Shown: piece after piece, positions 6,230 to 64,000 of the stretch
How positions within the stretch are numbered: the stretch's first letter is position 1
Layout of the letters: each line of letters opens with the position of its first letter
Translations under genes and position numbers: made by a program
Notes under the pieces: model-generated
What the model was told of the DNA's origin: nothing
Databases searched by the model: none
Seen by the model: the letters and a program-made list of their open reading frames with translations, nothing else
Assembly (NCBI GenBank): GCA_963920705.1
Contig: CAWUCO010000080.1
Location: forward strand, 620,001-684,000
DNA length: 64,000 nucleotides
Source of the DNA: Odiellus spinosus
Taxonomy: Eukaryota > Arthropoda > Arachnida > Opiliones > Phalangiidae
Direction: 5' to 3'

Positions 6230-8192
6230 TTCCCAAGTATGGATTCACAAATTTTCCAAATATAGATTCACAAATTTTCCATGTATAGATTAACAAATTT
6301 CAGAAGTATAGATTCACAAATTTCCCAAGTATGATTCACAAATTTCCCAAGTATAGATTCACAAATTTCTCAAGTATAGATTCACAAATTTCCCACGTAT
6401 AGATTCACAAATTTCCCACGTATAGATTCACAAATTTCCCAAGTATAGATTCACAAATTTCTCAAGTATAGATTCACAAATTTCCCAAGTATAGACTAAT
6501 ATATTTCCCAAGTATAGATTCACAAATTTCCCAATTATAGATTCACAAATTTCCCAAGTATAGATTCACAAATTTTCCAAATATAGATTCACAAATTTTC
6601 CGTGTATAGATTCACAAATTTCCCAAGTATAGATTCACAAATTTCAGAAGTATAGATTCACAAATTTCCCAAGTATAGATTCACAAATATCCCAAGTATA
6701 GATTCACAAATTTCCCATGTATAGATTCACAAATTTCCCAAGTATAGATTCACAAATTTCCCAAGTATGATTCAAAAATTTCCCAAGTATAGATTCACAA
6801 ATTTCCGAAGTATAGATTCACAAATTTTCCCAAATATAGATTCACAAATTTCCCAAGTATAGATTCACAAATTTCCCAAGAATAGATTCACAAATTTCTC
6901 AAGTATAGATTCACAAATTTCCCAAGTATTGACTAACATATTTCCCAAGTATAGACTAACATATTTCCGAAGTATAGATTCACAAATTTCCCAAGTATAG
7001 ATTCACAAATTTCCCAAGTATAGACTAATATATTTCCCAAGTATAGATTCACAAATTTACCAATTATAGATTCACAAATTTCCCAAGTATAGATTCACAA
7101 ATTTTCCAAATATAGATTCACAAATTTTCCATGTATAGATTCACAAATTTCCCAAGTATAGATTCACAAATTTCAGAAGTATAGATTCACAAATTTCCCA
7201 AGTATGATTCACAAATTTCCCAAGTATAGATTCACAAATTTCCCATGTATAGATTCACAAATTTCACATGTATAGATTCACAAATTTCCCATGAATAGAT
7301 TCACAAATTTCCCAAGTATGATTCAAAAATTTCCCAAGTATAGATTCACAAATTTCCCAAGTATAGATTCACAAATTTTCCCAAGTATAGATTCACAAAT
7401 TTCCCAAGTATAGATTCACAAATTTCCCAAGTATAGATTCACAAATTTTCCTAGTATAGATCCACAAATTTCCCAAGTATAGATCCACAAATTTCCCAAG
7501 TATAAATCCACAAATTTTTCAAGTATAGATTCACAAATTTCCCAAGTATAGTTTCACAAATTTTCCAAATATAGATTCACAAATTTTCCAAGTATAGATC
7601 CACAAATTTCCCAAGTATAGATCCACAAATTTCCCTAGTATAGATCCACAAATTTCCCAAGTATAGATTCACAAATTTCCCAAGTATAGATTTACAAATT
7701 TCCCAAGTATAGATTCACAAATTTTCCAAATATAGATTCACAAATTTTCCAAATATAGATTCACAAATTTCCCAAGTTTGATTGACAAATTTCCCAAGTA
7801 TAAATCCACAAATTTCTCAAGAATAGATTCACAAATTTCCCAAGTATGGATTCACAAATTTTCCAAATATAGATTCACAAATTTTCCATGTATAGATTAA
7901 CAAATTTCAGAAGTATAGATTCACAAATTTCCCAAGTATGATTCACAAATTTCCCAAGTATAGATTCACAAATTTCTCAAGTATAGATTCACAAATTTCC
8001 CACGTATAGATTCACAAATTTCCCACGTATAGATTCACAAATTTCCCAAGTATAGATTCACAAATTTCTCAAGTATAGATTCACAAATTTCCCAAGTATA
8101 GACTAATATATTTCCCAAGTATAGATTCACAAATTTCCCAATTATAGATTCACAAATTTCCCAAGTATAGATTCACAAATTTTCCAAATATA
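6230..8192 (+). repeat. Near-dispersed duplication, offset 1,607 bp
   Basis: The segment at about 6230-6585 recurs at 7837-8192. Shared markers are TATGGATTC (6238 and 7845) and GATTAAC (6288 and 7895), both 1,607 bp apart, followed by the same order of CAGAAG, TATGATTCAC, CTCAAG, two CCCACG monomers and GACTAATAT. DNA between the copies is ordinary satellite with GATCC, TTTTTCAAG and AAGTTTGATTG variants. The offset is 70 monomers minus 3 bp. Confidence 0.8.
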
Positions 8193-9397
8193 GATTCACA
8201 AATTTCCCAAGTTTGATTGACAAATTTCCCAAGTATAAATCCACAAATTTCTCAAGAATAGATTCACAAATTTCCCAAGTATAGATTCACAAATTTTCCA
8301 AATACAGATTCACAAATTTTCCAAGTATAGATTCACAAATTTCCCAAGTATAGATTCACAAATTTTCCTAGTATAGATCCACAAATTTCCCATGTATAGA
8401 TTCACAAATTTCCCATGTATAGATTCACAAATTTCCGAAGTATAGATTCACAAATTTCCCAAGTATGATTCAAAAAATTCCCAAGTATAGATTCACAAAT
8501 TTCCCAAGAATAGATTCACAAATTTCCCAAGAATAGATTCACAAATTTTCCCAAGCATAGATTCACAAATTTCTCAAGTATAGATTCACAAATTTCCCAA
8601 GTATAGACTAACATATTTCCGAAGTATAGATTCACAAATTTCCCAATTATAGATTCACAAATTTCCCAAGTATAGATTCACAAATTTTCCAAATATAGAT
8701 TCACAAATTTTCCATCTATAGATTCACAAATTTCCCAAGTATAGATTCACAAATTTCAGAAGTATAGATTCACAAATTTCCCAAGTATGATTCACAAATT
8801 TCCCAAGTATAGATTCACAAATTTCTCAAGTATAGATTCACAAATTTCCCACGTATAGATTCACAAATTTCCCATGTATAGGTTCACAAATTTCCCATGT
8901 ATAGATTCACAAATTTCCCAAGTATGATTCACAAATTTCCCAAGTATAGATTCACAAATTTCCTCAGTATAGATTCACAAATTTCCCAATTATAGATTCA
9001 CAAATTTCCAGAGTATAGATTCACAAATTTCCCAAGTATAGACTAACATATTTCCGAAGTATAGATTCACAAATTTCCCAAGTATAGATTCACAAATTTC
9101 TCAAGTATAGATTCACAAATTTCCCAAGTATAGACTAATATATTTCCCAAGTATAGATTCACAAATTTCCCAATTATAGATTCACAAATTTCCCAAGTAT
9201 AGATTCACAAATTTTCCAAATATAGATTCACAAATTTTCCATGTATAGATTCACAAATTTCCCAAGTATAGATTCACAAATTTCAGAAGTATAGATTCAC
9301 AAATTTCCCAAGTATGATTCACAAATTTCCCAAGTATAGATTCACAAATTTCCCATGTATAGATTCACAAATTTCACATGTATAGATTCACAAATTT

Positions 9398-9673
9398 CCC
9401 ATGAATAGATTCACAAATTTCCCAAGTATGATTCAAAAATTTCCCACGTATAGATTCACAAATTTCCCAAGTATAGATTCACAAATTTTCCCAAGTATAG
9501 ATTCACAAATTTCCCAAGTATAGATTCACAAATTTCCCATGAATAGATTCACAAATTTCCCAAGTATGATTCAAAAATTTACCAAGTATAGATTCACAAA
9601 TTTCCCAAGTATAGATTCACAAATTTTCCCAAGTATAGATTCACAAATTTCCCAAGTATAGATTCACAAATTT
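9398..9673 (+). repeat. 138-bp tandem duplication (six monomers)
   Basis: The CCCATGAATAG monomer begins at 9398 and again at 9536, exactly 138 bp (6 x 23) later. Each copy has one 22-bp TATGATTCAAAA monomer and one 24-bp TTTTCCCAAG monomer, which cancel in length. Copy 1 has CCCACG where copy 2 has TACCAAG. The same six-monomer doublet, including the CCCACG variant, recurs at 38371 and 38509, making it a useful marker of a long-range duplication. Confidence 0.85.
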
Positions 9674-9984
9674 CCCAAGTATAGATTCACAAATTTTCCT
9701 AGTATAGATCCACAAATTTCCCAAGTATAGATCCACAAATTTCCCAAGTATAAATCCACAAATTTTTCAAGTATAGATTCACAAATTTCCCAAGTATAGA
9801 TTCACAAATTTCCCAAGTATAGATTCACAAATTTTCCTAGTATAGATCCACAAATTTCCCAAGTATAGATCCACAAATTTCCCAAGTATAAATCCACAAA
9901 TTTTTCAAGTATAGATCCACAAATTTCCCAAGTATAGATACACAAATTTCCCTAGTATAGATCCACAAATTTCCCAAGTATAGA

Positions 9985-11480
9985 TTCACAAATTTCCCAA
10001 GTATAGATTTACAAATTTCCCAAGTATAGATTCACAAATTTTCCAAATATAGATTCACAAATTTTCCAAATATAGATTCACAAATTTCCCAAGTATAGAT
10101 TGACAAATTTCCCAAGTATAAATCCACAAATTTCTCAAGAATAGATTCACAAATTTCCTCAGTATAGATTCACAAATTTCCCAATTATAGATTCACAAAT
10201 TTCCAGAGTATGGATTCACAAATTTCCCAAGTATAGATTCACAAATTTCCCAAGTATAGATTCACAAATATCCCAAGTATAGATTCACAAATTTCCCATG
10301 TATAGATTCACAAATTTCCCATGTATAGATTCACAAATTTCCCAAGTATGATTCAAAAATTTCCCAAGTATAGATTCACAAATTTCCCAAGTATAGATTC
10401 ACAAATTTCCCAAGTATAGATTCACAAATTTCCCAAGAATAGATTCACAAATTTCCCATGTATAGATTTACAAATTTCCCAATTATAGATTCACAAATTT
10501 CCAGAGTATAGATTCACAAATTTCCCAAGTATAGATTCACAAATTTCCCAAGTATAGATTCACAAATTTCCCATGTATAGATTCACAAATTTCCCAATTA
10601 TAGATTCACAAATTTCCAGAGTATAGATTCACAAATTTCCCAAGTATAGATTCACAAATTTCCCAAGTATAGATTCACAAATATCCCAAGTATAGATTCA
10701 CAAATTTCCCGTGTATAGATTCACAAATTTCCCAAGTATAGATTCACAAATTTCCCAAGTATGATTCAAAAATTTCCCAAGTATAGATTCACAAATTTCC
10801 GAAGTATAGATTCACAAATTTTCCCAAATATAGATTCACAAATTTCCCAAGTATAGATTCACAAATTTCCCTAGAATAGATTCACAAATTTCTCAAGTAT
10901 AGATTCACAAATTTCCCAAGTATAGACTAACATATTTCCCAAGTATAGATTCACAAATTTCCCAAGTATAGATTCACAAATTTTCCAAATATAGATTCAC
11001 AAATTTTCCATGTATAGATTTACAACTTTCCCAAGTATAGATTCACAAATTTTCCAAATATAAATTCACAAATTTCCCAAGTATAGATTCACAAATTTCC
11101 CAAGTATAGATTTACAAATTTCCCAAGTATAGATTCACAAATTTTCCAAATATAGATTCACAAATTTTCCAAATATAGATTCACAAATTTCCCAAGTATA
11201 GATTGACAAATTTCCCAAGTATAAATCCACAAATTTCTCAAGAATAGATTCACAAATTTCCTCAGTATAGATTCACAAATTTCCCAATTATAGATTCACA
11301 AATTTCCAGAGTATGGATTCACAAATTTCCCAAGTATAGATTCACAAATTTCCCAAGTATAGATTCACAAATATCCCAAGTATAGATTCACAAATTTCCC
11401 ATGTATAGATTCACAAATTTCCCATGTATAGATTCACAAATTTCCCAAGTATGATTCAAAAATTTCCCAAGTATAGATTC
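9985..11480 (+). repeat. 1,103-bp offset duplication
   Basis: The segment at about 9985-10380 recurs at about 11088-11480. Both run GATTTAC, two TTCCAAATAT monomers, GATTGAC, AAATCCAC, CTCAAGAATAG, CCTCAG, CCCAATTAT and then CCAGAG followed by the rare TATGGATTC. TATGGATTC begins at 10209 and 11312, 1,103 bp apart (48 monomers minus 1 bp). The second copy lies inside the 874-bp duplication, so it gave rise to a third copy of TATGGATTC at 12186. Confidence 0.8.
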
Positions 11481-12548
11481 ACAAATTTCTCAAGTATAGA
11501 TTCACAAATTTCCCACGTATAGATTCACAAATTTCCCATGTATAGATTCACAAATTTCCCATGTATAGATTCACAAATTTCCCAAGTATAGATTCACAAA
11601 TTTCCCAAGTATAGATTCACAAATTTTCCATGTATAGATTCACAAATTCACCAAGTATAGATTCACAAATTTCAGAAGTATAGATTCACAAATTTTCCCA
11701 AATATAGATTCACAAATTTCCCAAGTATAGATTCACAAATTTCCCTAGAATAGATTCACAAATTTCTCAAGTATAGATTCACAAATTTCCCAAGTATAGA
11801 CTAACATATTTCCCAAGTATAGATTCACAAATTTCCCAAGTATAGATTCACAAATTTTCCAAATATAGATTCACAAATTTTCCATGTATAGATTTACAAC
11901 TTTCCCAAGTATAGATTCACAAATTTTCCAAATATAAATTCACAAATTTCCCAAGTATAGATTCACAAATTTCCCAAGTATAGATTTACAAATTTCCCAA
12001 GTATAGATTCACAAATTTTCCAAATATAGATTCACAAATTTTCCAAATATAGATTCACAAATTTCCCAAGTATAGATTGACAAATTTCCCAAGTATAAAT
12101 CCACAAATTTCTCAAGAATAGATTCACAAATTTCCTCAGTATAGATTCACAAATTTCCCAATTATAGATTCACAAATTTCCAGAGTATGGATTCACAAAT
12201 TTCCCAAGTATAGATTCACAAATTTCCCAAGTATAGATTCACAAATATCCCAAGTATAGATTCACAAATTTCCCATGTATAGATTCACAAATTTCCCATG
12301 TATAGATTCACAAATTTCCCAAGTATGATTCAAAAATTTCCCAAGTATAGATTCACAAATTTCTCAAGTATAGATTCACAAATTTCCCACGTATAGATTC
12401 ACAAATTTCCCATGTATAGATTCACAAATTTCCCATGTATAGATTCACAAATTTCCCAAGTATAGATTCACAAATTTCCCAAGTATAGATTCACAAATTT
12501 TCCATGTATAGATTCACAAATTCACCAAGTATAGATTCACAAATTTCA
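10801..12548 (+). repeat. 874-bp tandem duplication (38 monomers)
   Basis: Two adjacent copies, 10801-11674 and 11675-12548, are 874 bp each, exactly 38 x 23. Markers at this spacing are CCCTAGAA (10869 and 11743) and TATGGATTC (11312 and 12186). The left junctions differ: copy 1 is entered from TTCCGAAG and copy 2 from TTCAGAAG, so the exchange point lies at GAAG inside a monomer. Copy 2 exits through TTCAGAAG at 12549, as predicted by unequal crossover. Within this the sequence is close to identical by eye, suggesting a recent event. Confidence 0.88.
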
Positions 12549-14352
12549 GAAGTATAGATTCACAAATTTCCCAAGTATGATTCACAAATTTCCCAAGTAT
12601 AGATTCACAAATTTCTCAAGTATAGATTCACAAATTTCCCACGTATAGATTCACAAATTTCCCATGTATAGATTCACAAATTTCCCAAGTATATATTCAC
12701 AAATTTCCCAAGTATATATTCACAAATTTCCCAAGTATAGATTCACAAATATCCCAAGTATAGATTCACAAATTTCCCATGTATAGATTCACAAATTTCC
12801 CATGCATAGATTCACAAATTTCCCAAGTATAGATTCACAAATTTCCCAAGTATGATTCAAAAATTTCCCAAGTATAGATTCACAAATTTCCCAAGTATAG
12901 ATTCACAAATTTCCCAAGTATAGATTTACAAATTTCCCAAGTATAGATTCACAAATTTCCCAAGTATAGATTCACAAATTTCTCAAGTATAGATTCACAA
13001 ATTTCCCAAGTATAGACTAATATATTTCCCAAGTATAGATTCACAAATTTCCCAATTATAGATTCACAAATTTCCCAAGTATAGATTCACAAATTTCCCA
13101 ATTATAGATTCACAAATTTCCCAAGTATAGATTCACAAATTTCCCAAGTATAGATTCACAAATTTCTCAAGTATAGATTCACAAATTTCCCAAGTATAGA
13201 CTAATATATTTCCCAAGTATAGATTCACAAATTTCCCAAGTATAGATTCACAAATTTCCCAAGTATAGATTCACAAATTTTCCCAAGTATAGATTCACAA
13301 ATTTCCCAAGTATAGATTCACAAATTTCCCAAGTATAGATTCACAAATTTTCCTAGTAAGATCCAAAAATTTCCCAAGTATAGATCCACAAATTTCCCAA
13401 GTATAAATCCACAAATTTTTCAAGTATAGATTCACAAATTGCCCAAGTATAGATTCACAAATTTTCCAAATATAGATTCACAAATTTTCCAAGTATAGAT
13501 CCATAAATTTCCGAAGTATAGATCCACAAATTTCCCTAGTATAGATCCACAAATTTCCCAAGTATAGATTCACAAATTTCCCAAGTATAGATTTACAAAT
13601 TTCCCAAGTATAGATTCACAAATTTTCCAAATATAGATTCACAAATTTTCCAAATATAGATTCACAAATTTCCCAAGTATAGATTGACAAATTTCCCAAG
13701 TATAAATCCACAAATTTCTCAAGAATAGATTCACAAATTTCCCAAGTATAGATTCACAAATTTTCCAAATATAGATTCACAAATTTTCCAAGTATAGATT
13801 CACAAATTTCCCAAGTATAGATTCACAAATTTTCCTAGTATAGATCCACAAATTTCCCATGTATAGATTCACAAATTTCCCATGTATAGTTTCACAAATT
13901 TCCGAAGTATAGATTCACAAATTTCCCAAGTATGATTCAAAAAATTCCCAAGTAAAGATTCACAAATTTCCCAAGAATAGATTCACAAATTTTCCCAAGT
14001 ATAGATTCACAAATTTCCCAAGTATAGATTCACAAATTTCTCAAGTATAGATTCAAAAATTTCCCAAGTATAGACTAACATATTTCCGAAGTATAGATTC
14101 ACAAATTTCCCAATTATAGATTCACAAATTTCCCAAGTATAGATTCACAAATTTCCCAAGTATAGATTCACAAATTTCAGAAGTATAGATTCAAAAATTT
14201 CCCAAGTATGATTCACAAATTTCCCAAGTATAGATTCACAAATTTCTCAAGTATAGATTCACAAATTTCCCACGTATAGATTCACAAATTTCCCATGTAT
14301 AGATTCACAAATTTCCCATGTATAGATTCACAAATTTCCCAAGTATGATTCA
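12549..14352 (+). repeat. Satellite segment with TAGTAAG and AGTAAAG markers
   Basis: Gene-free satellite. It runs CAGAAG, CTCAAG, CCCACG, CATGCATAG, GATTTAC and two GACTAATATATTT monomers (about 13018 and 13198), then the 22-bp TAGTAAGATCC monomer at 13354. It continues with GATCC and TTTTTCAAG variants, TAGTTTCAC (about 13888) and AGTAAAGATTC (about 13953). The same order appears twice more at about 42.4-44.1 kb and 44.9-46.6 kb, so this looks like the single-copy counterpart of a region that was tandemly doubled there. Confidence 0.75.
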
Positions 14353-16236
14353 CAAATTTCCCAAGTATAGATTCACAAATTTCCTCAGTATAGATTCACA
14401 AATTTCCCAATTATAGATTCACAAATTTCCAGAGTATAGATTCACAAATTTCCCATGTATAGATTCACAAATTTCCCATGTATAGATTCACAAATTTCCC
14501 AAGTATAGATTCACAAATTTCCCAAGTATGATTCAAAAATTTCCCAAGTATAGATTCACAAATTTCCCAAGTATAGATTCACAAATTTCCCAAGTATAGA
14601 TTCACAAATTTCCCAAGAATAGATTCACAAATTTCTCAAGTATAGATTCACAAATTTCCCAAGTATAGACTAACATATTTCCCAAGTATAGATTCACAAA
14701 TTTCCCATGTATAGATTCACAAATTTCCCAAGTATAGATTCACAAATTTCCCAAGTATGATTCAAAAATTTCCCAAGTATAGATTCACAAATTTCCCAAG
14801 AATAGATTCACAAATTTTCCCAAATATAGATTCACAAATTTTCCATGTATATATTCACAAATTTCCCAAGTATAGATTCACAAATTTCAGAAGTATAGAT
14901 TCACAAATTTTCCTAGCATAGATCCACAAATTTCCCAAGTATAGATCCACAAATTTCCCAAGTATAAATCCACAAATTTTTCAAGTATAGATTCACAAAT
15001 TTCCCAAGTATAGATACACAAATTTTCCAAATATAGATTCACAAATTTTCCAAGTATAGATTTACAAATTTCCCAATTATAGATCCACGAATTTCCCTAG
15101 TATAGATCCACAAATTTCCCAAGTATAGATTCACAAATTTCCCAAGTATAGATTTACAAATTTCCCAAGTATAGATTCACAAATTTCCCAAGTATAGATT
15201 CACAAATTTCCCAAATATAAATTCACAAATTTCCCAAGTATAAATTCACAAATTTCCCAAGTATAAATTCACAAATTTCCCATGTATAGATTCACAAATT
15301 TCCCAAGTATAGATTCACAAATTTCCTCAGTATAGATTCACAAATTTCCCAATTATAGATTCACAAATTTCCAGAGTATAGATTCACAAATTTCCCATGT
15401 ATAGATTCACAAATTTCCCATGTATAGATTCACAAATTTCCCAAGTATAGATTCACAAATTTCCCAAGTATGATTCAAAAATTTCCCAAGTATAGATTCA
15501 CAAATTTCCCAAGTATAGATTCACAAATTTCCCAAGTATAGATTCACAAATTTCCCAAGAATAGATTCACAAATTTCTCAAGTATAGATTCACAAATTTC
15601 CCAAGTATAGACTAACATATTTCCCAAGTATAGATTCACAAATTTCCCATGTATAGATTCACAAATTTCCCAAGTATAGATTCACAAATTTCCCAAGTAT
15701 GATTCAAAAATTTCCCAAGTATAGATTCACAAATTTCCCAAGAATAGATTCACAAATTTTCCCAAATATAGATTCACAAATTTTCCATGTATATATTCAC
15801 AAATTTCCCAAGTATAGATTCACAAATTTCAGAAGTATAGATTCACAAATTTTCCTAGCATAGATCCACAAATTTCCCAAGTATAGATCCACAAATTTCC
15901 CAAGTATAAATCCACAAATTTTTCAAGTATAGATTCACAAATTTCCCAAGTATAGATACACAAATTTTCCAAATATAGATTCACAAATTTTCCAAGTATA
16001 GATTTACAAATTTCCCAAGTATAGATCCACAAATTTCCCTAGTATAGATCCACAAATTTCCCAAGTATAGATTCACAAATTTCCCAAGTATAGATTTACA
16101 AATTTCCCAAGTATAGATTCACAAATTTCCCAAGTATAGATTCACAAATTTCCCAAATATAAATTCACAAATTTCCCAAGTATAAATTCACAAATTTCCC
16201 AAGTATAAATTCACAAATTTCCCATGTATAGATTCA
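14353..16236 (+). repeat. 942-bp tandem duplication
   Basis: CCTCAG occurs at 14383 and 15325, and TAGCATAGATCC at 14914 and 15856; both pairs are 942 bp apart (41 monomers minus 1 bp, from one net 22-bp monomer). Copies are about 14353-15294 and 15295-16236. Each contains CCAGAG, CCCATG, TATGATTCAAAA, GACTAACAT, TTTTCCCAAATAT, CAGAAG, TAGCATAG, several GATCC monomers and a run of TATAAATTC monomers. Differences are few: copy 1 has CCCAATTAT and GATCCACGAA near 15075 where copy 2 has CCCAAGTAT and GATCCACAAA. Confidence 0.87.
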
Positions 16237-18960
16237 CAAATTTCCCAAGTATAGATTCACAAATTTCCCAAATATAGATTCACAAATTTCCCAAGAATAG
16301 ATTCACAAATTTCCCAAGTATAGATTCACAAATTTCTCAAGTATAGATTCACAAATTTCCCAAGTATAGACTAACATATTTCCCAAGTATAGATTCACAA
16401 ATTTCCCAAGTATAGATTCACAAATTTCCCAAGTATAGATTCACAAATTTCCCAAGTATAGATTCACAAATTTCTCAAGTATAGATTCACAAATTTCCCA
16501 CGTATAGATTCACAAATTTCCCATGTATAGATTCACAAATTTCCCAAGTATGATTCACAAATTTCCCAAGTATAGATTCACAAATTTCCCCAGTATAGAT
16601 TCACAAATTTCCCAATTATAGATTCACAAATTTCCAGAGTATAGATTCACAAATTTCCCAAGTATAGATTCACAAATTTCCCAAGTATAGATTCACAAAT
16701 ATCCCAAGTATAGATTCACAAATTTCCCATGTATAGATTCACAAATTTGCCAAGTATAGATTCACAAATTTCCCAAGTATGATTCAAAAATTTCCCAAGT
16801 ATAGATTCACAAATTTCCCAAGTATAGATTCACAAATTTTCCCAAATATAGATTCACAAATTTCCCAAGTATAGATTCACAAATTTCCCAAGAATAGATT
16901 CACAAATTTCTCAAGTATAGATTCACAAATTTCCCAAGTATAGACTAACATATTTCCCAAGTATAGATTCACAAACTTCCCAAGTATAGATTCACAAATT
17001 TTCCAAATATAGATTCACAAATTTCCCATGTATAGATTCACAAATTTCCCAAGTATAGATTCACAAATTTCCCAAGAATAGATTCACAAATTTTCCCAAG
17101 TATAGATTCACAAATTTCCCAAGTATAGATTCACCAATTTCCCAAGTATAGATTCATAAATTTCTCAAGTATAGATTCACAAATTTCCCAAGTATAGACT
17201 AACATATTTCCCAAGTATAGATTCACAAATTTCCCAATTATAGATTCACAAATTTCCCAAGTATAGATTCACAAATTTCCCAAGTATAGATTCACAAATT
17301 TCCCAAGAATAGATTCACAAATTTCTCAAGTATAGATTCACAAATTTCCCAAGTATAGACTAACATATATCCCAAGTATAGATTCACAAATTTCCCATGT
17401 ATAGATTCACAAATTTCCCAAGTATGATTCAAAAATTTCCCAAGTATAGATTCACAAATTTCCCAAGAATAGATTCACAAATTTTCCCAAATATAGATTC
17501 ACAAATTTTCCATGTATATATTCACAAATTTCCCAAGTATAGATTCACAAATTTCAGAAGTATAGATTCACAAATTTTCCTAGCATAGATCCACAAATTT
17601 CCCAAGTATAGATCCACAAATTTCCCAAGTATAAATCCACAAATTTTTCAAATATAGATTCACAAATTTCCCAAGTATAGATTCACAAATTTCCCAAATA
17701 TAAATTCACAAATTTCCCAAGTATAAATTCACAAATTTCCCAAGTATAAATTCACAAATTTCCCATGTATAGATTCACAAATTTCCCAAGTATAGATTCA
17801 CAAATTTCCCAAATATAGATTCACAAATTTCCCAAGAATAGATTCACAAATTTCCCAAGTATAGATTCACAAATTTCTCAAGTATAGATTCACAAATTTC
17901 CCAAGTATAGACTAACATATTTCCCAAGTATAGATTCACAAATTTCCCAAGTATAGATTCACAAATTTCCCAAGTATAGATTCACAAATTTCCCAAGTAT
18001 AGATTCACAAATTTCTCAAGTATAGATTCACAAATTTCCCACGTATAGATTCACAAATTTCCCATGTATAGATTCACAAATTTCCCAAGTATGATTCACA
18101 AATTTCCCAAGTATAGATTCACAAATTTCCCCAGTATAGATTCACAAATTTCCCAATTATAGATTCACAAATTTCCAGAGTATAGATTCACAAATTTCCC
18201 AAGTATAGATTCACAAATTTCCCAAGTATAGATTCACAAATATCCCAAGTATAGATTCACAAATTTCCCATGTATAGATTCACAAATTTCCCATGTATAG
18301 ATTCACAAATTTGCCAAGTATAGATTCACAAATTTCCCAAGTATGATTCAAAAATTTCCCAAGTATAGATTCACAAATTTCCCAAGTATAGATTCACAAA
18401 TTTTCCCAAATATAGATTCACAAATTTCCCAAGTATAGATTCACAAATTTCCCAAGAATAGATTCACAAATTTCTCAAGTATAGATTCACAAATTTCCCA
18501 AGTATAGACTAACATATTTCCCAAGTATAGATTCACAAACTTCCCAAGTATAGATTCACAAATTTTCCAAATATAGATTCACAAATTTCCCATGTATAGA
18601 TTCACAAATTTCCCAAGTATAGATTCACAAATTTCCCAAGAATAGATTCACAAATTTTCCCAAGTATAGATTCACAAATTTCCCAAGTATAGATTCACCA
18701 ATTTCCCAAGTATAGATTCATAAATTTCTCAAGTATAGATTCACAAATTTCCCAAGTATAGACTAACATATTTCCCAAGTATAGATTCACAAATTTCCCA
18801 ATTATAGATTCACAAATTTCCCAAGTATAGATTCACAAATTTCCCAAGTATAGATTCACAAATTTCCCAAGAATAGATTCACAAATTTCTCAAGTATAGA
18901 TTCACAAATTTCCCAAGTATAGACTAACATATATCCCAAGTATAGATTCACAAATTTCCC
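15672..18960 (+). repeat. Tandem duplication of 1,541-1,725 bp with monomer gain and loss
   Basis: A block at about 15672-17390 recurs at 17397-18960. The offset changes along the pair: 1,725 bp at TATGATTCAAAA (15698, 17423) and TAGCATAG (15856, 17581); 1,541 bp at CCCAAATATAAATTC (16152, 17693) and CCCCAG (16588, 18129); 1,564 bp at AAACTTCCC (16976, 18540). The steps are 184 bp (eight monomers lost in copy 2) and 23 bp (one extra CCCATG monomer in copy 2 near 18265). All three offsets are exact multiples of 23. Confidence 0.85.
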
Positions 18961-23430: not shown

Positions 23431-23499
23431 AAATTTCCCAAGTATAGACTAACATATTTCCCAAGTATAGTTTCACAAATTTCCCAAGTATAGATTCAC

Positions 23500-49160: not shown

Positions 49161-49179
49161 CCCAAGTATAGATTTACAA

Positions 49180-49480: not shown

Positions 49481-49719
49481 CACAAATTTCCCAAATATAG
49501 ATTCACAAATTTCCCAAGAATAGATTCACAAATTTCCCAAGTATAGATTCACAAATTTCCCAAGTATAGATTCACAAATTTCCCAAGTATAGACTAACAT
49601 ATTTCCCAAGTATAGATTCACAAATTTCCCAAGTATAGATTCACAAATTTCCCAAGTATAGATTCACAAATTTCCCAAGTATAGATTCACAAATTTCTCA
49701 AGTATAGATTCACAAATTT

Positions 49720-49993: not shown

Positions 49994-51229
49994 CCCAATT
50001 ATAGATTCACAAATTTCCAGAGTATAGATTCACAAATTTCCCAAGTATAGATTCACAAATTTCCCAAGTATAGATTCACAAATATCCCAAGTATAGATTC
50101 ACAAATTTCCCATGTATAGATTCACAAATTTCCCATGTATAGATTCACAAATTTCCCAAGTATAGATTCACAAATTTCCCAAGTATGATTCAAAAATTTC
50201 CCAAGTATAGATTCACAAATTTCCCAAGTATAGATTCACAAATTTTCCCAAATATAGATTCACAAATTTCCCAAGTATAGATTCACAAATTTCCCAAGAA
50301 TAGATTCACAAATTTCTCAAGTATAGATTCACAAATTTCCCAAGTATAGACTAACATATTTCCCAAGTATAGATTCACAAACTTCCCAAGTATAGATTCA
50401 CAAATTTTCCAAATATAGATTCACAAATTTCCCATGTATAGATTCACAAATTTCCCAAGTATAGATTCACAAATTTCCCAAGAATAGATTCACAAATTTT
50501 CCCAAGTATAGATTCACAAATTTCCCAAGTATAGATTCACCAATTTCCCAAGTATAGATTCATAAATTTCTCAAGTATAGATTCACAAATTTCCCAAGTA
50601 TAGACTAACATATTTCCCAAGTATAGATTCACAAATTTCCCAATTATAGATTCACAAATTTCCCAAGTATAGATTCACAAATTTTCCAAATATAGATTCA
50701 CAAATTTTCCATGTATAGATTCACAAATTTCCCAAGTATAGATTCACAAATTTCAGAAGTATAGATTCACAAATTTCCCACGTATAGATTCACAAATTTC
50801 CCATGTATAGATTCACAAATTTCCCATGTATAGATTCACAAATTTCCCAAGTATGATTCACAAATTTCCCAAGTATAGATTCACAAATTTCCTCAGTATA
50901 GATTCACAAATTTCCCAATTATAGATTCACAAATTTCCAGAGTATAGATTCACAAATTTCCCATGTATAGATTCAGAAATTTCCCATGTATAGATTCACA
51001 AATTTCCCAAGTATAGATTCACAAATTTCCCAAGTATGATTCAAAAATTTCCCAAGTATAGATTCACAAATTTCCCAAGTATAGATTCACAAATTTCCCA
51101 AGTATAGATTCACAAATTTCCCAAGAATAGATTCAAAAATTTCTCAAGTATAGATTCACAAATTTCCCAAGTATAGACTAACATATTTCCCAAGTATAGA
51201 TTCACAAATTTCCCAAGTATGATTCAAAA

Positions 51230-52750: not shown

Positions 52751-53759
52751 TCCCAAGTATAGATTCACAAATTTCCCAAATATAAATTCACAAATTTCCC
52801 AAGTATAAATTCACAAATTTCCCAAGTATAAATTCACAAATTTCCATGGATAGATTCACAAATTTCCCAAGTATAGATTCACAAATTTCCCAAATATAGA
52901 TTCACAAATTTCCCAAGAATAGATTCACAAATTTCCCAAGTATAGATTCACAAATTTCTCAAGTATAGATTCACAAATTTCCCAAGTATAGACTAACATA
53001 TTTCCCAAGTATAGATTCACAAATTTCCCAAGTATAGATTCACAAATTTCCCAAGTATAGATTCACAAATTTCCCAAGTATAGATTCACAAATTTCTCAA
53101 GTATAGATTCACAAATTTCCCACGTATAGATTCACAAATTTCCCATGTATAGATTCACAAATTTCCCATGTATAGATTCACAAATTTCCCAAGTATGATT
53201 CACAAATTTCCCAAGTATAGATTCACAAATTTCCCCAGTATAGATTCACAAATTTCCCAATTATAGATTCACAAATTTCCAGAGTATAGATTCACAAATT
53301 TCCCAAGTATAGATTCACAAATTTCCCAATTATAGATTCACAAATATCCCAAGTATAGATTCACAAATTTCCCATGTATAGATTCACAAATTTCCCATGT
53401 ATAGATTCACAAATTTCCCAAGTATAGATTCACAAATTTCCCAAGTATGATTCAAAAATTTCCCAAGTATAGATTCACAAATTTCCCAAGTATAGACTAA
53501 CAAATTTCCCAATTATAGATTCACAAATTTCCCAAGTATAGATTCACAAATTTTCCAAATATAGATTCACAAATTTTCCATGTATAGATTCAAAAATTTC
53601 CCAAGTATAGATTCACAAATTTCAGAAGTATAGATTCACAAATTTCCCACGTATAGATTCACAAATTTCCCATGTATAGATTCACAAATTTCCCATGTAT
53701 AGATTCACAAATTTCCCAAGTATGATTCACAAATTTCCCAAGTATAGATTCACAAATTT

Positions 53760-56700
53760 CCCCAGTATAGATTCACAAATTTCCCAATTATAGATTCACA
53801 AATTTCCAGAGTATAGATTCACAAATTTCCCAAGTATAGATTCACAAATTTTCCAAATATAAATTCACAAATTTTCCAAATATAGATTCACAAATTTCCC
53901 AAGTATAGACTAACATATTTCCCAAGTATAGATTCACAAATTTCCCAAGTATAGATTCACAAATTTCCCAAGTATAGATTCACAAATTTTCCAAATATAG
54001 ATTCACAAATTTCCCAAGTATAGATTCACAAATTTCCCAAGTATAGATTCACAAATTTCCCATGTATAGATTCACAAATTTCCCATGTATAGATTCACAA
54101 ATTTCCCAAGTATAGATTCACAAATTTTCCAAGTATAGATTCACAAATTTCCCATGTATAGATTCACAAATTTCCCATGTATAGATTCACAAATTTCCCA
54201 AGTATAGATTCACAAATTTTCCAAATATAAATTCACAAATTTTCCAAATATAGATTCACAAATTTCCCAAGTATAGACTAACATATTTCCCAAGTATAGA
54301 TTCACAAATTTCCCAAGTATAGACTAACATATTTCCCAAGTATAGATTCACAAATTTCCCAATTATAGATTCACAAATTTCCCAAGTATAGATTCACAAA
54401 TTTTCCAAATATAGATTCACAAATTTTCCATGTATAGATTCACAAATTTCCCAAGTATAGATTCACAAATTTCAGAAGTATAGATTCACAAATTTCCCAC
54501 GTATAGATTCACAAATTTCCCATGTATAGATTCACAAATTTCCCATGTATAGATTCACAAATTTCCCAAGTATGATTCACAAATTTCCCAAGTATAGATT
54601 CACAAATTTCCCCAGTATAGATTCACAAATTTCCCAATTATAGATTCACAAATTTCCAGAGTATAGATTCACAAATTTCCCAAGTATAGATTCACAAATT
54701 TTCCAAATATAAATTCACAAATTTTCCAAATATAGATTCACAAATTTCCCAAGTATAGACTAACATATTTCCCAAGTATAGATTCACAAATTTCCCAAGT
54801 ATAGATTCACAAATTTCCCAAGTATAGATTCACAAATTTTCCAAATATAGATTCACAAATTTCCCAAGTATAGATTCACAAATTTCCCAAGTATAGATTC
54901 ACAAATTTCCCATGTATAGATTCACAAATTTCCAATGTATAGATTCACAAATTTCCCAAGTATAGATTCACAAATTTCCCAAGTATAGATTCACAAATTT
55001 CCCAAATATAGATTCACAAATTTCCCAAATATAGATTCACAAATTTCCCATGTATAGATTCACAAATTTCCCAAGTATAGATTCACAAATTTCCCAAGTA
55101 TAGATTCACAAATTTCCCAAATATAGATTCACAAATTTCCCAAGAATAGATTCACAAATTTCCCATGTATAGATTCACAAATTTCCCAAGTATAGATTCA
55201 CAAATTTCTCAAGTATAGATTCACAAATTTCCCAAGTATAGACTAACATATTTCCCAAGTATAGATTCACAAATTTCCCAAGTATAGACTAACATATTTC
55301 CCAAGTATAGATTCACAAATTTCCCAAGTATAGATTCACAAATTTCCCAAGTATAGATTCACAAATTTCCCAATTATAGATTCACAAATTTCCCAAGTAT
55401 AGATTCACAAATTTTCCAAATATAGATTCACAAATTTTCCATGTATAGATTCACAAATTTCCCAAGTATAGATTCACAAATTTCAGAAGTATAGATTCAC
55501 AAATTTCCCACGTATAGATTCACAAATTTCCCATGTATAGATTCACAAATTTCCCATGTATAGATTCACAAATTTCCCAAGTATGATTCACAAATTTCCC
55601 AAGTATAGATTCACAAATTTCCCCAGTATAGATTCACAAATTTCCCAATTATAGATTCACAAATTTCCAGAGTATAGATTCACAAATTTCCCAAGTATAG
55701 ATTCACAAATTTTCCAAATATAAATTCACAAATTTTCCAAATATAGATTCACAAATTTCCCAAGTATAGACTAACATATTTCCCAAGTATAGATTCACAA
55801 ATTTCCCAAGTATAGATTCACAAATTTCCCAAGTATAGATTCACAAATTTTCCAAATATAGATTCACAAATTTCCCAAGTATAGATTCACAAATTTCCCA
55901 AGTATAGATTCACAAATTTCCCATGTATAGATTCACAAATTTCCCATGTATAGATTCACAAATTTCCCAAGTATAGATTCACAAATTTTCCAAGTATAGA
56001 TTCACAAATTTCCCATGTATAGATTCACAAATTTCCCATGTATAGATTCACAAATTTCCCAAGTATAGATTCACAAATTTTCCAAATATAAATTCACAAA
56101 TTTTCCAAATATAGATTCACAAATTTCCCAAGTATAGACTAACATATTTCCCAAGTATAGATTCACAAATTTCCCAAGTATAGACTAACATATTTCCCAA
56201 GTATAGATTCACAAATTTCAGAATTATAGATTCACAAATTTCCCAAGTATAGATTCACAAATTTTCCAAATATAGATTCACAAATTTTCCATGTATAGAT
56301 TCACAAATTTCCCAAGTATAGATTCACAAATTTCAGAAGTATAGATTCACAAATTTCCCACGTATAGATTCACAAATTTCCCATGTATAGATTCACAAAT
56401 TTCCCATGTATAGATTCACAAATTTCCCAAGTATGATTCACAAATTTCCCAAGTATAGATTCACAAATTTCCCCAGTATAGATTCACAAATTTCCCAATT
56501 ATAGATTCACAAATTTCCAGAGTATAGATTCACAAATTTCCCAAGTATAGATTCACAAATTTTCCAAATATAAATTCACAAATTTTCCAAATATAGATTC
56601 ACAAATTTCCCAAGTATAGACTAACATATTTCCCAAGTATAGATTCACAAATTTCCCAAGTATAGATTCACAAATTTCCCAAGTATAGATTCACAAATTT

Positions 56701-59700
56701 TCCAAATATAGATTCACAAATTTCCCAAGTATAGATTCACAAATTTCCCAAGTATAGATTCACAAATTTCCCATGTATAGATTCACAAATTTCCAATGTA
56801 TAGATTCACAAATTTCCCAAGTATAGATTCACAAATTTCCCAAGTATAGATTCACAAATTTCCCAATTATAGATTCACAAATTTCCCAAATATAGATTCA
56901 CAAATTTCCCATGTATAGATTCACAAATTTCCCAAGTATGGATTCACAAATTTCCCAAGTATAGATTCACAAATTTCCCAAATATAGATTCACAAATTTC
57001 CCAAGAATAGATTCACAAATTTCCCATGTATAGATTCACAAATTTCCCAAGTATAGATTCACAAATTTCTCAAGTATAGATTCACAAATTTCCCAAGTAT
57101 AGACTAACATATTTCCCAAGTATAGATTCACAAATTTCCCAAGTATAGACTAACATATTTCCCAAGTATAGATTCACAAATTTCCCAAGTATAGATTCAC
57201 AAATTTCCCAAGTATAGATTCACAAATTTTCCAAATATAGATTCACAAATTTCCCAAGTATAGATTCACAAATTTCCCAAGTATAGATTCACAAATTTCC
57301 CATGTATAGATTCACAAATTTCCCATGTATAGATTCACAAATTTCCCAAGTATAGATTCACAAATTTTCCAAGTATAGATTCACAAATTTCCCATGTATA
57401 GATTCACAAATTTCCCATGTATAGATTCACAAATTTTCCATGTATAGATTCACAAATTTCCCAAGTATAGATTCACAAATTTCAGAAGTATAGATTCACA
57501 AATTTCCCACGTATAGATTCACAAATTTCCCATGTATAGATTCACAAATTTCCCATGTATAGATTCACAAATTTCCCAAGTATGATTCACAATTTTCCCA
57601 AATATAGATTCACAAATTTCCCAAGTATAGATTCACAAATTTCTCAAGTATAGATTCACAAATTTCCCAAGTATAGACTAACATATTTCCCAAGTATAGA
57701 TTCACAAACTTCCCAAGTATAGATTCACAAATTTTCCAAATATAGATTCACAAATTTCCCATGTATAGATTCACAAATTTCCCAAGTATAGATTCACAAA
57801 TTTCCCAAGAATAGATTCACAAATTTTCCCAAGTATGGATTCACAAATTTCCCAAGTATAGATTCACCAATTTCCCAAGTATAGATTCATAAATTTCTCA
57901 AGTATAGATTCACAAATTTCCCAAGTATAGACTAACATATTTCCCAAGTATAGATTCACAAATTTCCCAATTATAGATTCACAAATTTCCCAAGTATAGA
58001 TTCACAAATTTTCCAAATATAGATTCACAAATTTTCCATGTATAGATTCACAAATTTCCCAATTATAGATTCACAAATTTCAGAAGTATAGATTCACAAA
58101 TTTCCCACGTATAGATTCACAAATTTCCCATGTATAGATTCACAAATTTCCCATGTATAGATTCACAAATTTCCCAAGTATGATTCACAAATTTCCCAAG
58201 TATAGATTCACAAATTTCCCCAGTATAGATTCACAAATTTCCCAATTATAGATTCACAAATTTCCAGAGTATAGATTCACAAATTTCCCAAGTATAGATT
58301 CACAAATTTTCCAAATATAAATTCACAAATTTTCCAAATATAGATTCACAAATTTCCCAAGTATAGACTAACATATTTCCAAAGCATAGATTCACAAATT
58401 TCCCAAGTATAGATTCACAAATTTCCCAAGTATAGATTCACAAATTTTCCAAATATAGATTCACAAATTTCCCAAGTATAGATTCACAAATTTCCCAAGT
58501 ATAGATTCACAAATTTCCCATGTATAGATTCACAAATTTCCCATGTATAGATTCACAAATTTCCCAAGTATAGATTCACAAATTTCCCAAGTATAGATTC
58601 ACAAATTTTCCAAATATAAATTCACAAATTTTCCAAATATTGATTCACAAATTTCCCAAGTATAGACTAACATATTTCCCAAGTATAGATTCACAAATTT
58701 CCCAAGTATAGACTAACATATTTCCCAAGTATAGATTCACAAATTTCCCAATTATAGATTCACAAATTTCCCAAGTATAGATTCACAAATTTCCCAAGTA
58801 TAGATTCACAAATTTTCCAAATATAGATTCACAAATTTTCCATGTATAGATTCACAAATTTCCCAAGTATAGATTCACAAATTTCAGAAGTATAGATTCA
58901 CAAATTTCCCACGTATAGATTCACAAATTTCCCATGTATAGATTCACAAATTTCCCATGTATAGATTCACAAATTTCCCAAGTATGATTCACAAATTTCC
59001 CAAGTATAGATTCACAAATTTCCCCAGTATAGATTCACAAATTTCCCAATTATAGATTCACAAATTTCCAGAGTATAGATTCACAAATTTCCCAAGTATA
59101 GATTCACAAATTTTCCAAATATAAATTCACAAATTTTCCAAATATAGATTCACAAATTTCCCAAGTATAGACTAACATATTTCCCAAGTATAGATTCACA
59201 AATTTCCCAAGTATAGATTCACAAATTTCCCAAGTATAGATTCACAAATTTTCCAAATATAGATTCACAAATTTCCCAAGTATAGATTCACAAATTTCCC
59301 AAGTATAGATTCACAAATTTCCCATGTATAGATTCATAAATTTCCCATGTATAGATTCACAAATTTCCCAAGTATAGATTCACAAATTTTCCAAGTATAG
59401 ATTCACAAATTTCCCATGTATAGATTCACAAATTTCCCATGTATAGATTCACAAATTTCCCAAGTATAGATTCACAAATTTTCCAAATATAAATTCACAA
59501 ATTTTCCAAATATAGATTCACAAATTTCCCAAGTATAGACTAACATATTTCCCAAGTATAGATTCACAAATTTCCCAAGTATAGACTAACATATTTCCCA
59601 AGTATAGATTCACAAATTTCCCAATTATAGATTCACAAATTTCCCAAGTATAGATTCACAAATTTTCCAAATATAGATTCACAAATTTTCCATGTATAGA

Positions 59701-62700
59701 TTCACAAATTTCCCAAGTATAGATTCACAAATTTCAGAAGTATAGATTCACAAATTTCCCACGTATAGATTCACAAATTTCCCATGTATAGATTCACAAA
59801 TTTCCCATGTATAGATTCACAAATTTCCCAAGTATGATTCACAAATTTCCCAAGTATAGATTCACAAATTTCCCCAGTATAGATTCACAAATTTCCCAAT
59901 TATAGATTCACAAATTTCCAGAGTATAGATTCACAAATTTCCCAAGTATAGATTCACAAATTTTCCAAATATAAATTCACAAATTTTCCAAATATAGATT
60001 CACAAATTTCCCAAGTATAGACTAACATATTTCCCAAGTATAGATTCACAAATTTCCCAAGTATAGATTCACAAATTTCCCAAGTATAGATTCACAAATT
60101 TTCCAAATATAGATTCACAAATTTCCCAAGTATAGATTCACAAATTTCCCAAGTATAGATTCACAAATTTCCCATGTATAGATTCACAAATTTCCCATGT
60201 ATAGATTCACAAATTTCCCATGTATAGATTCACAAATCTCCCAAGTATAGATTCACAAATTTCCCAAGTATAGATTCACAAATTTCCCAAATATAGATTC
60301 ACAAATTTCCCAAATATAGATTCACAAATTTCCCATGTATAGATTCACAAATTTCCCAAGTATAGATTCACAAATTTCCCAAGTATAGATTCACAAATTT
60401 CCCAAATATAGATTCACAAATTTCCCAAGAATAGATTCACAAATTTCCCAAGTATAGATTCACAAATTTCCCAAGTATAGATTCACAAATTTCCCAAGTA
60501 TAGATTCACAAATTTCTCAAGTATAGATTCACAAATTTCCCAAGTATAGACTAACATATTTCCCAAGTATAGATTCACAAATTTCCCAAGTATAGATTCA
60601 CAAATTTCCCAAGTATAGATTCACAAATTTCCCAAGTATGATTCAAAAATTTCCCAAGTATAGATTCACAAATTTTCCCAAATATAGATTCACAAATTTC
60701 CCAAGTATAGATTCACAAATTTCCCAAGAATAGATTCACAAATTTCTCAAGTATAGATTCACAAATTTCCCAAGTATAGACTAACATATTTCCCAAGTAT
60801 AGATTCACAAACTTCCCAAGTAGAGATTCACAAATTTTCCAAATATAGATTCACAAATTTCCCATGTATAGATTCACAAATTTCCCAAGTATAGATTCAC
60901 AAATTTCCCAAGTATGATTCAAAAATTTCCCAAGTATAGATTCACAAATTTCCCAAGAATAGATTCACAAATTTTCCCAAGTATAGATTCACAAATTTCC
61001 CAAGTATAGATTCACCAATTTCCCAAGTATAGATTCATAAATTTCTCAAGTATAGATTCACAAATTTCCCAAGTATAGACTAACATATTTCCCAAGTATA
61101 GATTCACAAATTTCCCAATTATAGATTCACAAATTTCCCAAGTATAGATCCACAAATTTCCCAAGTATAAATCCACAAATTTTTCAAGTATAGATTCACA
61201 AATTTCCCAAGTATAGATACACAAATTTTCCAAATATAGATTCACAAATTTTCCAAGTATAGATTTACAAATTTCCCAAGTATAGATCCACAAATTTCCC
61301 TAGTATAGATCCACAAATTTCCCTAGTATAGATCCACAAATTTCCCAAGTATAGATTCACAAATTTCCCAAGTATAGATTTACAAATTTCCCAAGTATAG
61401 ATTCACAAATTTCCCAAGTATAGATTCACAAATTTCCCAAATATAAATTCACAAATTTCCCAAGTATAAATTCACAAATTTCCCAAGTATAAATTCACAA
61501 ATTTCCCATGTATAGATTCACAAATTTCCCAAGTATAGAATCACAAATTTCCCAAATATAGATTCACAAATTTCCCAAGAATAGATTCACAAATTTCCCA
61601 AGTATAGATTCACAAATTTCTCAAGTATAGATTCACAAATTTCCCAAGTATAGACTAACATATTTCCCAAGTATAGATTCACAAATTTCCCAAGTATAGA
61701 TTCACAAATTTCCCAAGTATAGATTCACAAATTTCCCAAGTATAGATTCACAAATTTCTCAAGTATAGATTCACAAATTTCCCACGTATAGATTCACAAA
61801 GTTCCCATGTATAGATTCACAAATTTCCCATGTATAGATTCACAAATTTCCCAAGTATGATTCACAAATTTCCCAAGTATAGATTCACAAATTTCCCCAG
61901 TATAGATTCACAAATTTCCCAATTATAGATTCACAAATTTCCAGAGTATAGATTCACAAATTTCCCAAGTATAGATTCACAAATTTCCCAAGTATAGATT
62001 CACAAATATCCCAAGTATAGATTCACAAATTTCCCATGTATAGATTCACAAATTTCCCATGTATAGATTCACAAATTTCCCAAGTATAGATTCACAAATT
62101 TCCCAAGTATGATTCAAAAATTTCCCAAGTATAGATTCACAAATTTCCCAAGTATAGATTCACAAATTTTCCCAAATATAGATTCACAAATTTCCCAAGT
62201 ATAGATTCACAAATTTCCCAAGAATAGATTCACAAATTTCCCAAGTATAGACTAACATATTTCCCAAGTATAGATTCACAAACTTCCCAAGTATAGATTC
62301 ACAAATTTTCCAAATATAGATTCACAAATTTCCCATGTATAGATTCACAAATTTCCCAAGTATAGATTCACAAATTTCCCAAGAATAGATTCACAAATTT
62401 TCCCAAGTATGGATTCACAAATTTCCCAAGTATAGATTCACCAATTTCCCAAGTATAGATTCATAAATTTCTCAAGTATAGATTCACAAATTTCCCAAGT
62501 ATAGACTAACATATTTCCCAAGTATAGATTCACAAATTTCCCAATTATAGATTCACAAATTTCCCAAGTATAGATTCACAAATTTTCCAAATATAGATTC
62601 ACAAATTTTCCATGTATAGATTCACAAATTTCCCAAGTATAGATTCACAAATTTCAGAAGTATAGATTCACAAATTTCCCACGTATAGATTCACAAATTT

Positions 62701-64000
62701 CCCATGTATAGATTCACAAATTTCCCATGTATATATTCACAAATTTCCCAAGTATGATTCACAAATTTCCCAAGTATAGATTCACAAATTTCCCCAGTAT
62801 AGATTCACAAATTTCCCAATTATAGATTCACAAATTTCCAGAGTATAGATTCACAAATTTCCCAAGTATAGATTCACAAATTTTCCAAATATAAATTCAC
62901 AAATTTTCCAAATATAGATTCACAAATTTCCCAAGTATAGACTAACATATTTCCAAAGCATAGATTCACAAATTTCCCAAGTATAGATTCACAAATTTCC
63001 CAAGTATAGATTCACAAATTTTCCAAATATAGATTCACAAATTTCCCAAGTATAGATTCACAAATTTCCCAAGTATAGATTCACAAATTTCCCATGTATA
63101 GATTCACAAATTTCCCATGTATAGATTCACAAATTTCCCAAGTATAGATTCACAAATTTCCCAAGTATAGATTCACAAATTTTCCAAATATAAATTCACA
63201 AATTTTCCAAATATTGATTCAAAAATTTCCCAAGTATAGACTAACATATTTCCCAAGTATAGATTCACAAATTTCCCAAGTATAGACTAACATATTTCCC
63301 AAGTATAGATTCACAAATTTCCCAATTATAGATTCACAAATTTCCCAAGTATAGATTCACAAATTTTCCAAATATAGATTCACAAATTTTCCATGTATAG
63401 ATTCACAAATTTCCCAAGTATAGATTCACAAATTTCAGAAGTATAGATTCACAAATTTCCCACGTATAGATTCACAAATTTCCCATGTATAGATTCACAA
63501 ATTTCCCATGTATAGATTCACAAATTTCCCAAGTATGATTCACAAATTTCCCAAGTATAGATTCACAAATTTCCCCAGTATAGATTCACAAATTTCCCAA
63601 TTATAGATTCACAAATTTCCAGAGTATAGATTCACAAATTTCCCAAGTATAGATTCACAAATTTTCCAAATATAAATTCACAAATTTTCCAAATATAGAT
63701 TCACAAATTTCCCAAGTATAGACCAACATATTTCCCAAGTATAGATTCACAAATTTCCCAAGTATAGATTCACAAATTTCCCAAGTATAGATTCACAAAT
63801 TTTCCAAATATAGATTCACAAATTTCCCAAGTATAGATTCACAAATTTCCCAAGTATAGATTCACAAATTTCCCATGTATAGATTCACAAATTTCCCATG
63901 TATAGATTCACAAATTTCCCAAGTATAGATTCACAAATTTTCCAAGTATAGATTCACAAATTTCCCATGTATAGATTCACAAATTTCCCATGTATAGATT
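53760..64000 (+). repeat. Cassette region with an 850-bp higher-order repeat
   Basis: CCCCAG starts at 53760, 54610, 55621, 56471, 58218, 59022, 59872, 61895, 62792 and 63573. Spacings are 850, 1011, 850, 1747, 804, 850, 2023, 897 and 781 bp. All are 23n-1 except 897, which is 23 x 39. The 850-bp unit (36 monomers of 23 bp and one of 22 bp) appears three times: 53760-54609, 55621-56470 and 59022-59871. They share the same order of TTCCAAATATAAATTC, GACTAACAT, CCCATG pairs, TTTTCCAAG, CAGAAG and CCCACG. The copies are not contiguous but alternate with longer or shorter versions, so this is a mosaic higher-order array. Confidence 0.85.

What the first reader, a model, noticed from the sequence alone, without database searches (positions are those of the whole stretch)
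7000..64000. Colinear super-repeat of about 30 kb hidden in a simple satellite
Rare variant monomers recur in the same order in 7-23 kb and 36.8-64 kb. Pairs (left, right, offset): TACCAATTATAG 7058/36808 (about 29.75 kb); CCCACG in the CATGAATAG doublet 9443/38416 (28,973); CCCGTG 10708/39543 and CCCTAGAA 10869/39704 (both 28,835); TAGTAAG 13354/43242 (29,888); TAGCATAG 15856/47351 (31,495). The offset drifts upward as local duplications expand the right unit. It implies segmental duplication of tens of kb within the array, on top of monomer-scale and kb-scale turnover. That the order survives so much local change is the striking part.
Basis: seen in the sequence. Interest (0 to 1): 0.8.

Follow-up and report, generated by a model that had tools for sequence, protein, structure and literature searches.

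The report
Large nested duplications inside satellite DNA
A very monotonous stretch of repeated 23-letter DNA in what is probably an arthropod genome holds a duplicated segment, roughly 15 to 21 thousand letters long, whose rare spelling variants keep the same order in both copies, which suggests that such DNA grows by copying long pieces of itself.

Summary
The whole window is a 23-bp head-to-tail satellite. All six marker pairs are at the stated coordinates. Aligning the monomer strings gives a long broken off-diagonal, 6,976-28,400 against 36,726-73,611: 663 aligned monomers, 0.53% difference, 32 gaps. Right-hand blocks of up to 4 kb, shuffled, never reach its in-window score (0 of 200 each; 8-kb blocks 11 of 200). 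Three marker words occur 3, 3 and 2 times in the whole 443-Mb genome, all within 39 kb.

There is no fixed 30-kb unit: offsets run 28.8 to 45.7 kb and partial further rounds follow. Younger duplications (0.04-0.09% different) lie on top, one of them adjacent and 9.2 kb long. This is multi-scale satellite turnover of a known kind, unusually legible. Assembly error cannot be excluded without reads.

The parts
1..64000 (+). 23-bp satellite, consensus AGATTCACAAATTTCCCAAGTAT; part of an array seen in every stretch sampled from contig base 1 to 891 kb of a 902.5-kb contig, one strand
6976..28400 (+). left copy of the long duplication (homology to the 35.0-kb copy of block A starts at about 6,953)
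36726..64000 (+). right copy as far as the window end; the alignment continues to 73,611 in window coordinates (contig 693,611)
35026..35898 (+). extra copy of block A (6,953-7,825), offset 28,073
12349..22573 (+). left member of a second chain wholly inside the window, offsets 32.3-34.0 kb (partner 44,694-55,285)
   Evidence: 7,856 bp aligned, 33 differences, 18 gaps;
44694..55285 (+). right member of that chain
41801..46508 (+). young duplication of about 2.46 kb inside the right copy (41,801-44,005 and 44,258-46,508; 2 differences in 2,205 bp)
   Evidence: 6 of 9 pieces of the 110-monomer right gap at 43,891-46,416 have a near copy in the same unit
53517..64000 (+). block F (counterpart of 21-22.5 kb) in several local copies, with some E-like sequence at 61-62 kb; the offset jumps from about 35 to 44 kb here
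207..9429 (+). right copy of a young adjacent duplication of about 9.2 kb; left copy at window coordinates -9,568 to 137
   Evidence: 9,177 bp aligned, 4 differences, 5 gaps
49216..49253 (+). the only monomers in the window off the 22-24 bp length (a 21-mer and a 17-mer), repeated at 49,369-49,406
   Evidence: also the 15-bp rows

Best explanation
The window is part of a large non-coding satellite array that grows and shrinks by copying blocks of whole monomers within itself, at scales from one 23-bp monomer to more than 10 kb. Here a segment of probably 15-20 kb or more was duplicated; the copies then took point changes and many smaller in-register duplications and deletions, so rare variants keep their order while their distances differ. 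The most likely machinery is homologous exchange between misaligned sister chromatids (unequal exchange), or replication-coupled repair that re-copies part of the array. Shown here: order, near-register, divergence, nesting, decay with distance. Inferred: the machinery, and that one long event rather than several made the copy. The confidence given is for real in-register copying within the array; the one-long-event step alone I would put near 0.6.
For: Colinearity beyond block-shuffle, permutation and parse-free controls. The copies share three marker words found only here in the 443-Mb genome, although the satellite has at least 433,594 near-matches there. Register: of 6,534 monomers in 150 kb 11 are not 22-24 bp long, one of them the cut monomer at the end; the other 10 reduce by eye to about four events and their copies. 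Orientation: no reverse-strand consensus 12-mers in the window; reverse fraction 0.00 in the sampled stretches. Ages: 0.53% and 0.42% for the long copy, 0.09% and 0.04% for the 2.46-kb and 9.2-kb duplications. Decay: 419 of 592 half-kb pieces have a near copy in the 150 kb, 342 of the 419 within 12 kb; reversed controls 0 of 592. Pieces from nine stretches elsewhere on the contig match the left copy at the same threshold in 0 of 234 cases.
Against: The small-cap arrays hold fewer near copies (0.41-0.68 of pieces) than the real array (0.73), which weights that comparison against small caps; the eight 10.1-kb arrays that were matched to 0.70-0.74 reach at most 505 pairs. Larger caps were run with more substitutions per event (up to 8). 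The observed chain has more gaps (32) than all but one of the 96 arrays. Eight-kb block shuffles reach the score in 11 of 200 (19 of 200 with the region to 75 kb). The end of the left copy (28.4-35 kb) shows no counterpart after 73.6 kb at the thresholds used. Register is looser elsewhere: 38 of 432 and 23 of 435 monomers are not 22-24 bp in the stretches at 0-10 and 100-110 kb of the contig. Gaps are whole monomers by construction of the alignment, and the divergences come from alignments chosen for similarity, so they are minimum values.
Confidence: 0.8

Rival explanations
1. Assembly artefact: two haplotypes of the same array region, or a mis-joined repeat, were laid end to end, giving a false tandem copy.
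For: The contig starts inside the array, and the satellite also lies at the starts of contigs C8 and C16, so the assembly breaks in this satellite. Alleles of a satellite could look like this: same order, 0.5% difference, block gaps (inference). The 9.2-kb pair is nearly identical (0.044%).
Against: Nested copies at many offsets, a shortened third round (D, F, G at 74-79 kb) and further D/E copies at 92-109 kb would need several such errors. Not decisive without reads.
Confidence: 0.12
2. Stepwise build-up: no event longer than about 10 kb; several adjacent duplications of 5-10 kb happened to keep the order. (This is a variant within real in-register copying, so its odds overlap with those of the best explanation.)
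For: A 9.2-kb event is directly visible. Eight-kb block shuffles reach it in 11 of 200.
Against: The match of simulated to real arrays is imperfect (see the best explanation).
Confidence: 0.25
3. Rolling-circle copies from extrachromosomal circles of the satellite, put back into the array.
For: Would also give head-to-tail, in-register copies. Extrachromosomal circles from plant satellites have been surveyed (PMC2543021; only the listing and abstract start were seen).
Against: Copies are local: three marker words occur only within 39 kb in the whole genome and similarity falls with distance. Reinsertion from circles would be expected to scatter copies (inference).
Confidence: 0.06
4. No real super-repeat: equal order arises because the same few variants recur everywhere.
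Against: Reversed-order, block-shuffle, permutation and exact-word controls and the genome-wide rarity of three marker words.
Confidence: 0.02

Closest known systems
Higher-order repeats (HORs) and evolutionary layers of human alpha-satellite centromeres (PMC11062924; listing and passages seen)
   Same: Variant monomers copied together; layers of different age; array edges more divergent than the interior (here mean distance to consensus 0.117 at the sampled left end and 0.16-0.21 from 865 kb on, against 0.045-0.062 in the other stretches).
   Different: Monomer 23 bp instead of about 171 bp; no single regular HOR period in the 150 kb; chromosomal role unknown.
Variant telomeric repeat arrays of Arabidopsis with HORs (PMC11406999; passages seen)
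   Same: Very short unit; variant units used as markers; [quoted passage not shown]
   Different: Those are arrays at chromosome ends (recalled to be much shorter; length not checked); here the array is near 0.9 Mb and copied blocks reach 10 kb and more.
Unequal crossover model of repeated DNA (Smith 1976; recalled, seen only as a citation)
   Same: Neutral in-register exchange makes and reshapes repeats (recalled).
   Different: To fit the present chain my version of it needs event sizes reaching past 10 kb.
Crossover-built domains of alpha-satellite HOR arrays (PMC2853522; abstract seen)
   Same: Crossovers that homogenise and expand arrays into domains and sub-domains.
   Different: Human HOR arrays with regular units.

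Membership tests
Satellite DNA | Long head-to-tail tandem array, abundant in the genome | tested here: met
   2,788 monomers in the window; satellite in all stretches sampled from 1 to 891 kb of the contig; 433,594 near-matches genome-wide
Satellite DNA | Non-coding | tested here: met
   Read directly from the consensus, no call: TAG on + and TGA on - once per 23 bp, which falls in every frame because 23 is not a multiple of 3
Higher-order repeat array (alpha-satellite sense) | Groups of variant monomers repeated together | tested here: met
Higher-order repeat array (alpha-satellite sense) | Regular unit repeated with a constant period over the array | tested here: not met
   Rare-monomer autocorrelation in 150 kb: best lag 351 monomers with 4.3% match, many other weak lags, no regular ladder seen among the 30 listed. 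Local kb-scale runs do exist
Tandem segmental duplication | Adjacent copies of a multi-kb segment, colinear | tested here: met
   9.2-kb pair, copies 69 bp apart; the long pair is colinear
Tandem segmental duplication | End of the first long copy matched at the end of the second | tested here: inconclusive
   28.4-35 kb shows no counterpart after 73.6 kb
Centromeric satellite | Binds the centromeric histone, lies at centromeres | not testable with these tools
   no chromatin or cytogenetic data

The most novel reading that the evidence does not exclude
In this array whole-block duplication and deletion happen at a rate of the same order as point substitution (gaps to differences 5:4, 18:33, 32:80, 1:2 and 1:13 in the five pairs measured), at sizes from one monomer to well over 10 kb and nearly always in 23-bp register. 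A simple satellite would then be a readable record of dated copying events, usable to measure the size law of exchange.
Probability: 0.4. Interest if true: 0.5.

Novelty: new member of a known kind. Interest (0 to 1): 0.38.

Why it matters
Short-period satellites are often treated as featureless. Here rare variants act as natural markers, so order, relative age and size of individual copying events can be read from one assembly. That would make the size distribution of exchange in satellite DNA measurable in an array with a 23-bp unit, outside the primate and plant arrays where such structure is best known (the last clause is from the papers listed and from recall).

Tried and rejected
A first self-alignment with loose gap costs joined nearly everything to everything and was discarded; stricter costs were used from then on. 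Single rare monomers as markers were too few for a test (5 of 7, permuted maximum 6). A fixed higher-order period was looked for and not found. Reverse-strand copies were looked for and not seen. The species was not identified: the COX1 frame on contig C286 reads with the invertebrate mitochondrial code and TTAGG-type words are present, from which I infer an arthropod. Seven paper searches listed no title or abstract start that names a 23-bp satellite like this one; the listed papers were not read through, so this is no proof that none exists. The simulations cover one size law (log-uniform), an independent starting array and 8 or 12 arrays per setting.
Full report
What the window is. All 64 kb are one tandem array of a 23-bp unit (TRF: 2,786 copies, 91% matches), which my parser cuts into 2,788 pieces of 188 kinds. 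The window is bases 620,001-684,000 of contig C90 (902.5 kb) in a genome of 443,074,358 bases and 286 contigs. Satellite was found in every stretch sampled from base 1 to 891 kb, on one strand; the last 2.5 kb of the contig are not satellite and hold frames with reverse transcriptase and endonuclease domains, a LINE-like element. Genome-wide there are 127,732 forward and 305,862 reverse near-matches to a 34-base satellite word, which at one per 23 bp means about 10 Mb or more (inference).

Check of the observation. The 12 marker positions are exact. I fetched flanks so that 150 kb (window coordinates -39,999 to 110,000) could be compared with itself as a string of 6,534 monomers. Apart from one near-diagonal path that spans the whole stretch at offsets of 1.4-1.9 kb at its ends (row 0), the best alignment is 6,976-28,400 with 36,726-73,611: 33 blocks, 663 aligned monomers (593 identical), 15,226 bp with 80 differences (0.53%). 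Its offsets go 29,750, 28,973, 28,950, 28,835, 30,348, 29,382, 29,888, then 32.3-35.0 kb, then 42.2-45.7 kb. A second path inside the window pairs 12,349-22,573 with 44,694-55,285 (7,856 bp, 33 differences, 18 gaps). Other strong alignments lie outside the finding, for example within -34 to -14 kb; among 15-kb chunks the pair -10/5 kb scores highest (756), then 5/35 kb (485), -40/-25 kb (313) and 20/65 kb (271).

Controls. Score of 0-33 kb against 34-64 kb: 608; reversed order: 17.6; right part shuffled in blocks of 253 bp to 4 kb: 0 of 200 each; 8-kb blocks: 11 of 200. With the region to 75 kb: 619.7, and for the six block sizes 0, 0, 0, 0, 1 and 19 of 200. Words present exactly twice in the window, copies at least 10 kb apart, left in 5-30 kb and right in 34-64 kb: 21 of 23 (3 monomers) and 27 of 31 (4 monomers) colinear, permuted maxima 11 and 14; single monomers 5 of 7, maximum 6, not decisive. 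Exact 92-, 115- and 161-mers of the same kind: 17 of 22, 16 of 21 and 17 of 20 runs colinear, permuted maxima 12, 11 and 11. Whole-genome exact searches: a 40-base word with TACCAATTATAG occurs 3 times, at window -2,193, 7,053 and 36,803; a 28-base word with TAGTAAG 3 times, at 13,348, 43,236 and 45,739; a 40-base word with CCCGTG twice, at 10,679 and 39,514.

Anatomy. Mapping the 150 kb on the left copy shows one block order (pieces at cost 9 or less; block names are mine): A (7.0) at 35.0, 36.8, 40.8; B (10.0-10.5) at 39.0-39.3; C (12.3-13.5) at 40.1, 42.3-43.4, 44.5-46; D (14.2-15.7) at 46.7-48.5 and 51; E (18) at 49.6-50; F (21.4-22) at 54-64, with D/E-like pieces at 61-61.7; G (23-28) at 66.9-73. 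Then come a short third round (D 74.2-74.6, F 76.4-76.8, G 79.0-79.4) and D/E copies at 92-98 and 104-109 kb. Nine stretches elsewhere on the contig gave 0 of 234 pieces at the same threshold (two stretches came as near as 10.9); reversed pieces gave none of 407. The pair -9,568 to 137 and 207 to 9,429 is an adjacent duplication with 4 differences in 9,177 bp, so block A exists in a further copy left of the window.

Order of events. Divergence is 0.42-0.53% for the long copy, 0.09% for the 2.46-kb duplication in the right copy and 0.04% for the 9.2-kb duplication; a pair at 83-94 kb has 0.40%. Of the 14 gaps of 20 monomers or more in the long chain, 10 are filled mostly by pieces with a near copy in the same unit and 4 are not; 58 of 86 twelve-monomer pieces in all (my sums; no control was run for this count). 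Gaps total 944 monomers on the right and 270 on the left (my sums).

Mechanism. Copies are in direct orientation and nearly in register: 10 internal monomers of 6,534 are not 22-24 bp long, and by eye they go back to about four events and their copies. Register is looser elsewhere on the contig: 38 of 432 and 23 of 435 monomers at 0-10 and 100-110 kb. Near copies are mostly close: of 592 half-kb pieces 419 have a copy, 342 of those within 12 kb, none beyond 100 kb; reversed controls 0 of 592. This fits homologous in-register exchange or repair between sister chromatids; no assay for that is available here, so the machinery is inferred. The observed chain has more gaps than all but one of the 96 arrays. 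An event of more than 10 kb, probably 15-20 kb or more, is favoured; a 30-kb event is not required.

Limits. No reads were available, so false duplication by the assembler stays open. The tail of the left copy (28.4-35 kb) is not matched after 73.6 kb. Alignments were chosen for similarity. The contig could not be fetched whole.

Comparison. Human alpha-satellite arrays show higher-order repeats, layers and saltatory amplification; unequal crossing over is named as a cause, and for one new HOR variant other mechanisms are implicated (PMC11062924, passages). Variant telomeric repeats in Arabidopsis form higher-order repeats, explained there by slippage and unequal crossing over (PMC11406999, passages). 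A Drosophila study ascribes higher-order repeats to unequal exchanges (PMC12400953, passages). The present array is the same kind of thing with a 23-bp unit and irregular, long copying events: a new member of a known kind.

Noticed in passing
window -9,568 to 137 and 207 to 9,429 (contig C90:610,432-629,429): Adjacent duplication of about 9.2 kb with 4 differences in 9,177 bp and 5 whole-monomer gaps.
   Followed up: yes
L030-L032 (1 kb each at C90:865,001, 880,001, 890,001) and L009 (C90:1-10,000): Sampled ends of the array are divergent; from about 865 kb another sub-family (AGATCCAAAAATGTCCCCAGTAG) appears, whose places in a capped list are all on C90 and C137.
   Followed up: partly
L009 and L010 (C90:1-10,000 and 100,001-110,000): Many monomers off the 22-24 bp length (38 of 432 and 23 of 435), unlike the window (4 of 2,788, apart from cut ends).
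   Followed up: no
contig C8:210-3,113: Many listed places of the satellite recur with a shift of 1,469 bp, suggesting a kb-scale higher-order unit in another array (read from the list).
   Followed up: no
L024 (C90:900,001-902,500): Frames of a LINE-like element (reverse transcriptase and endonuclease domains) beyond the array.
   Followed up: no
L001-L006 (C1 about 701-703 kb): Another tandem repeat with a unit near 20 bp (GGACAAGGATATGTTAATCG-like); CATGAATAG words there are about 103 or 206 bp apart.
   Followed up: no
contig C17, several places: COX1-like matches with TGA and TAG codons inside, probably mitochondrial DNA copied to the nucleus.
   Followed up: no
   Followed up: no
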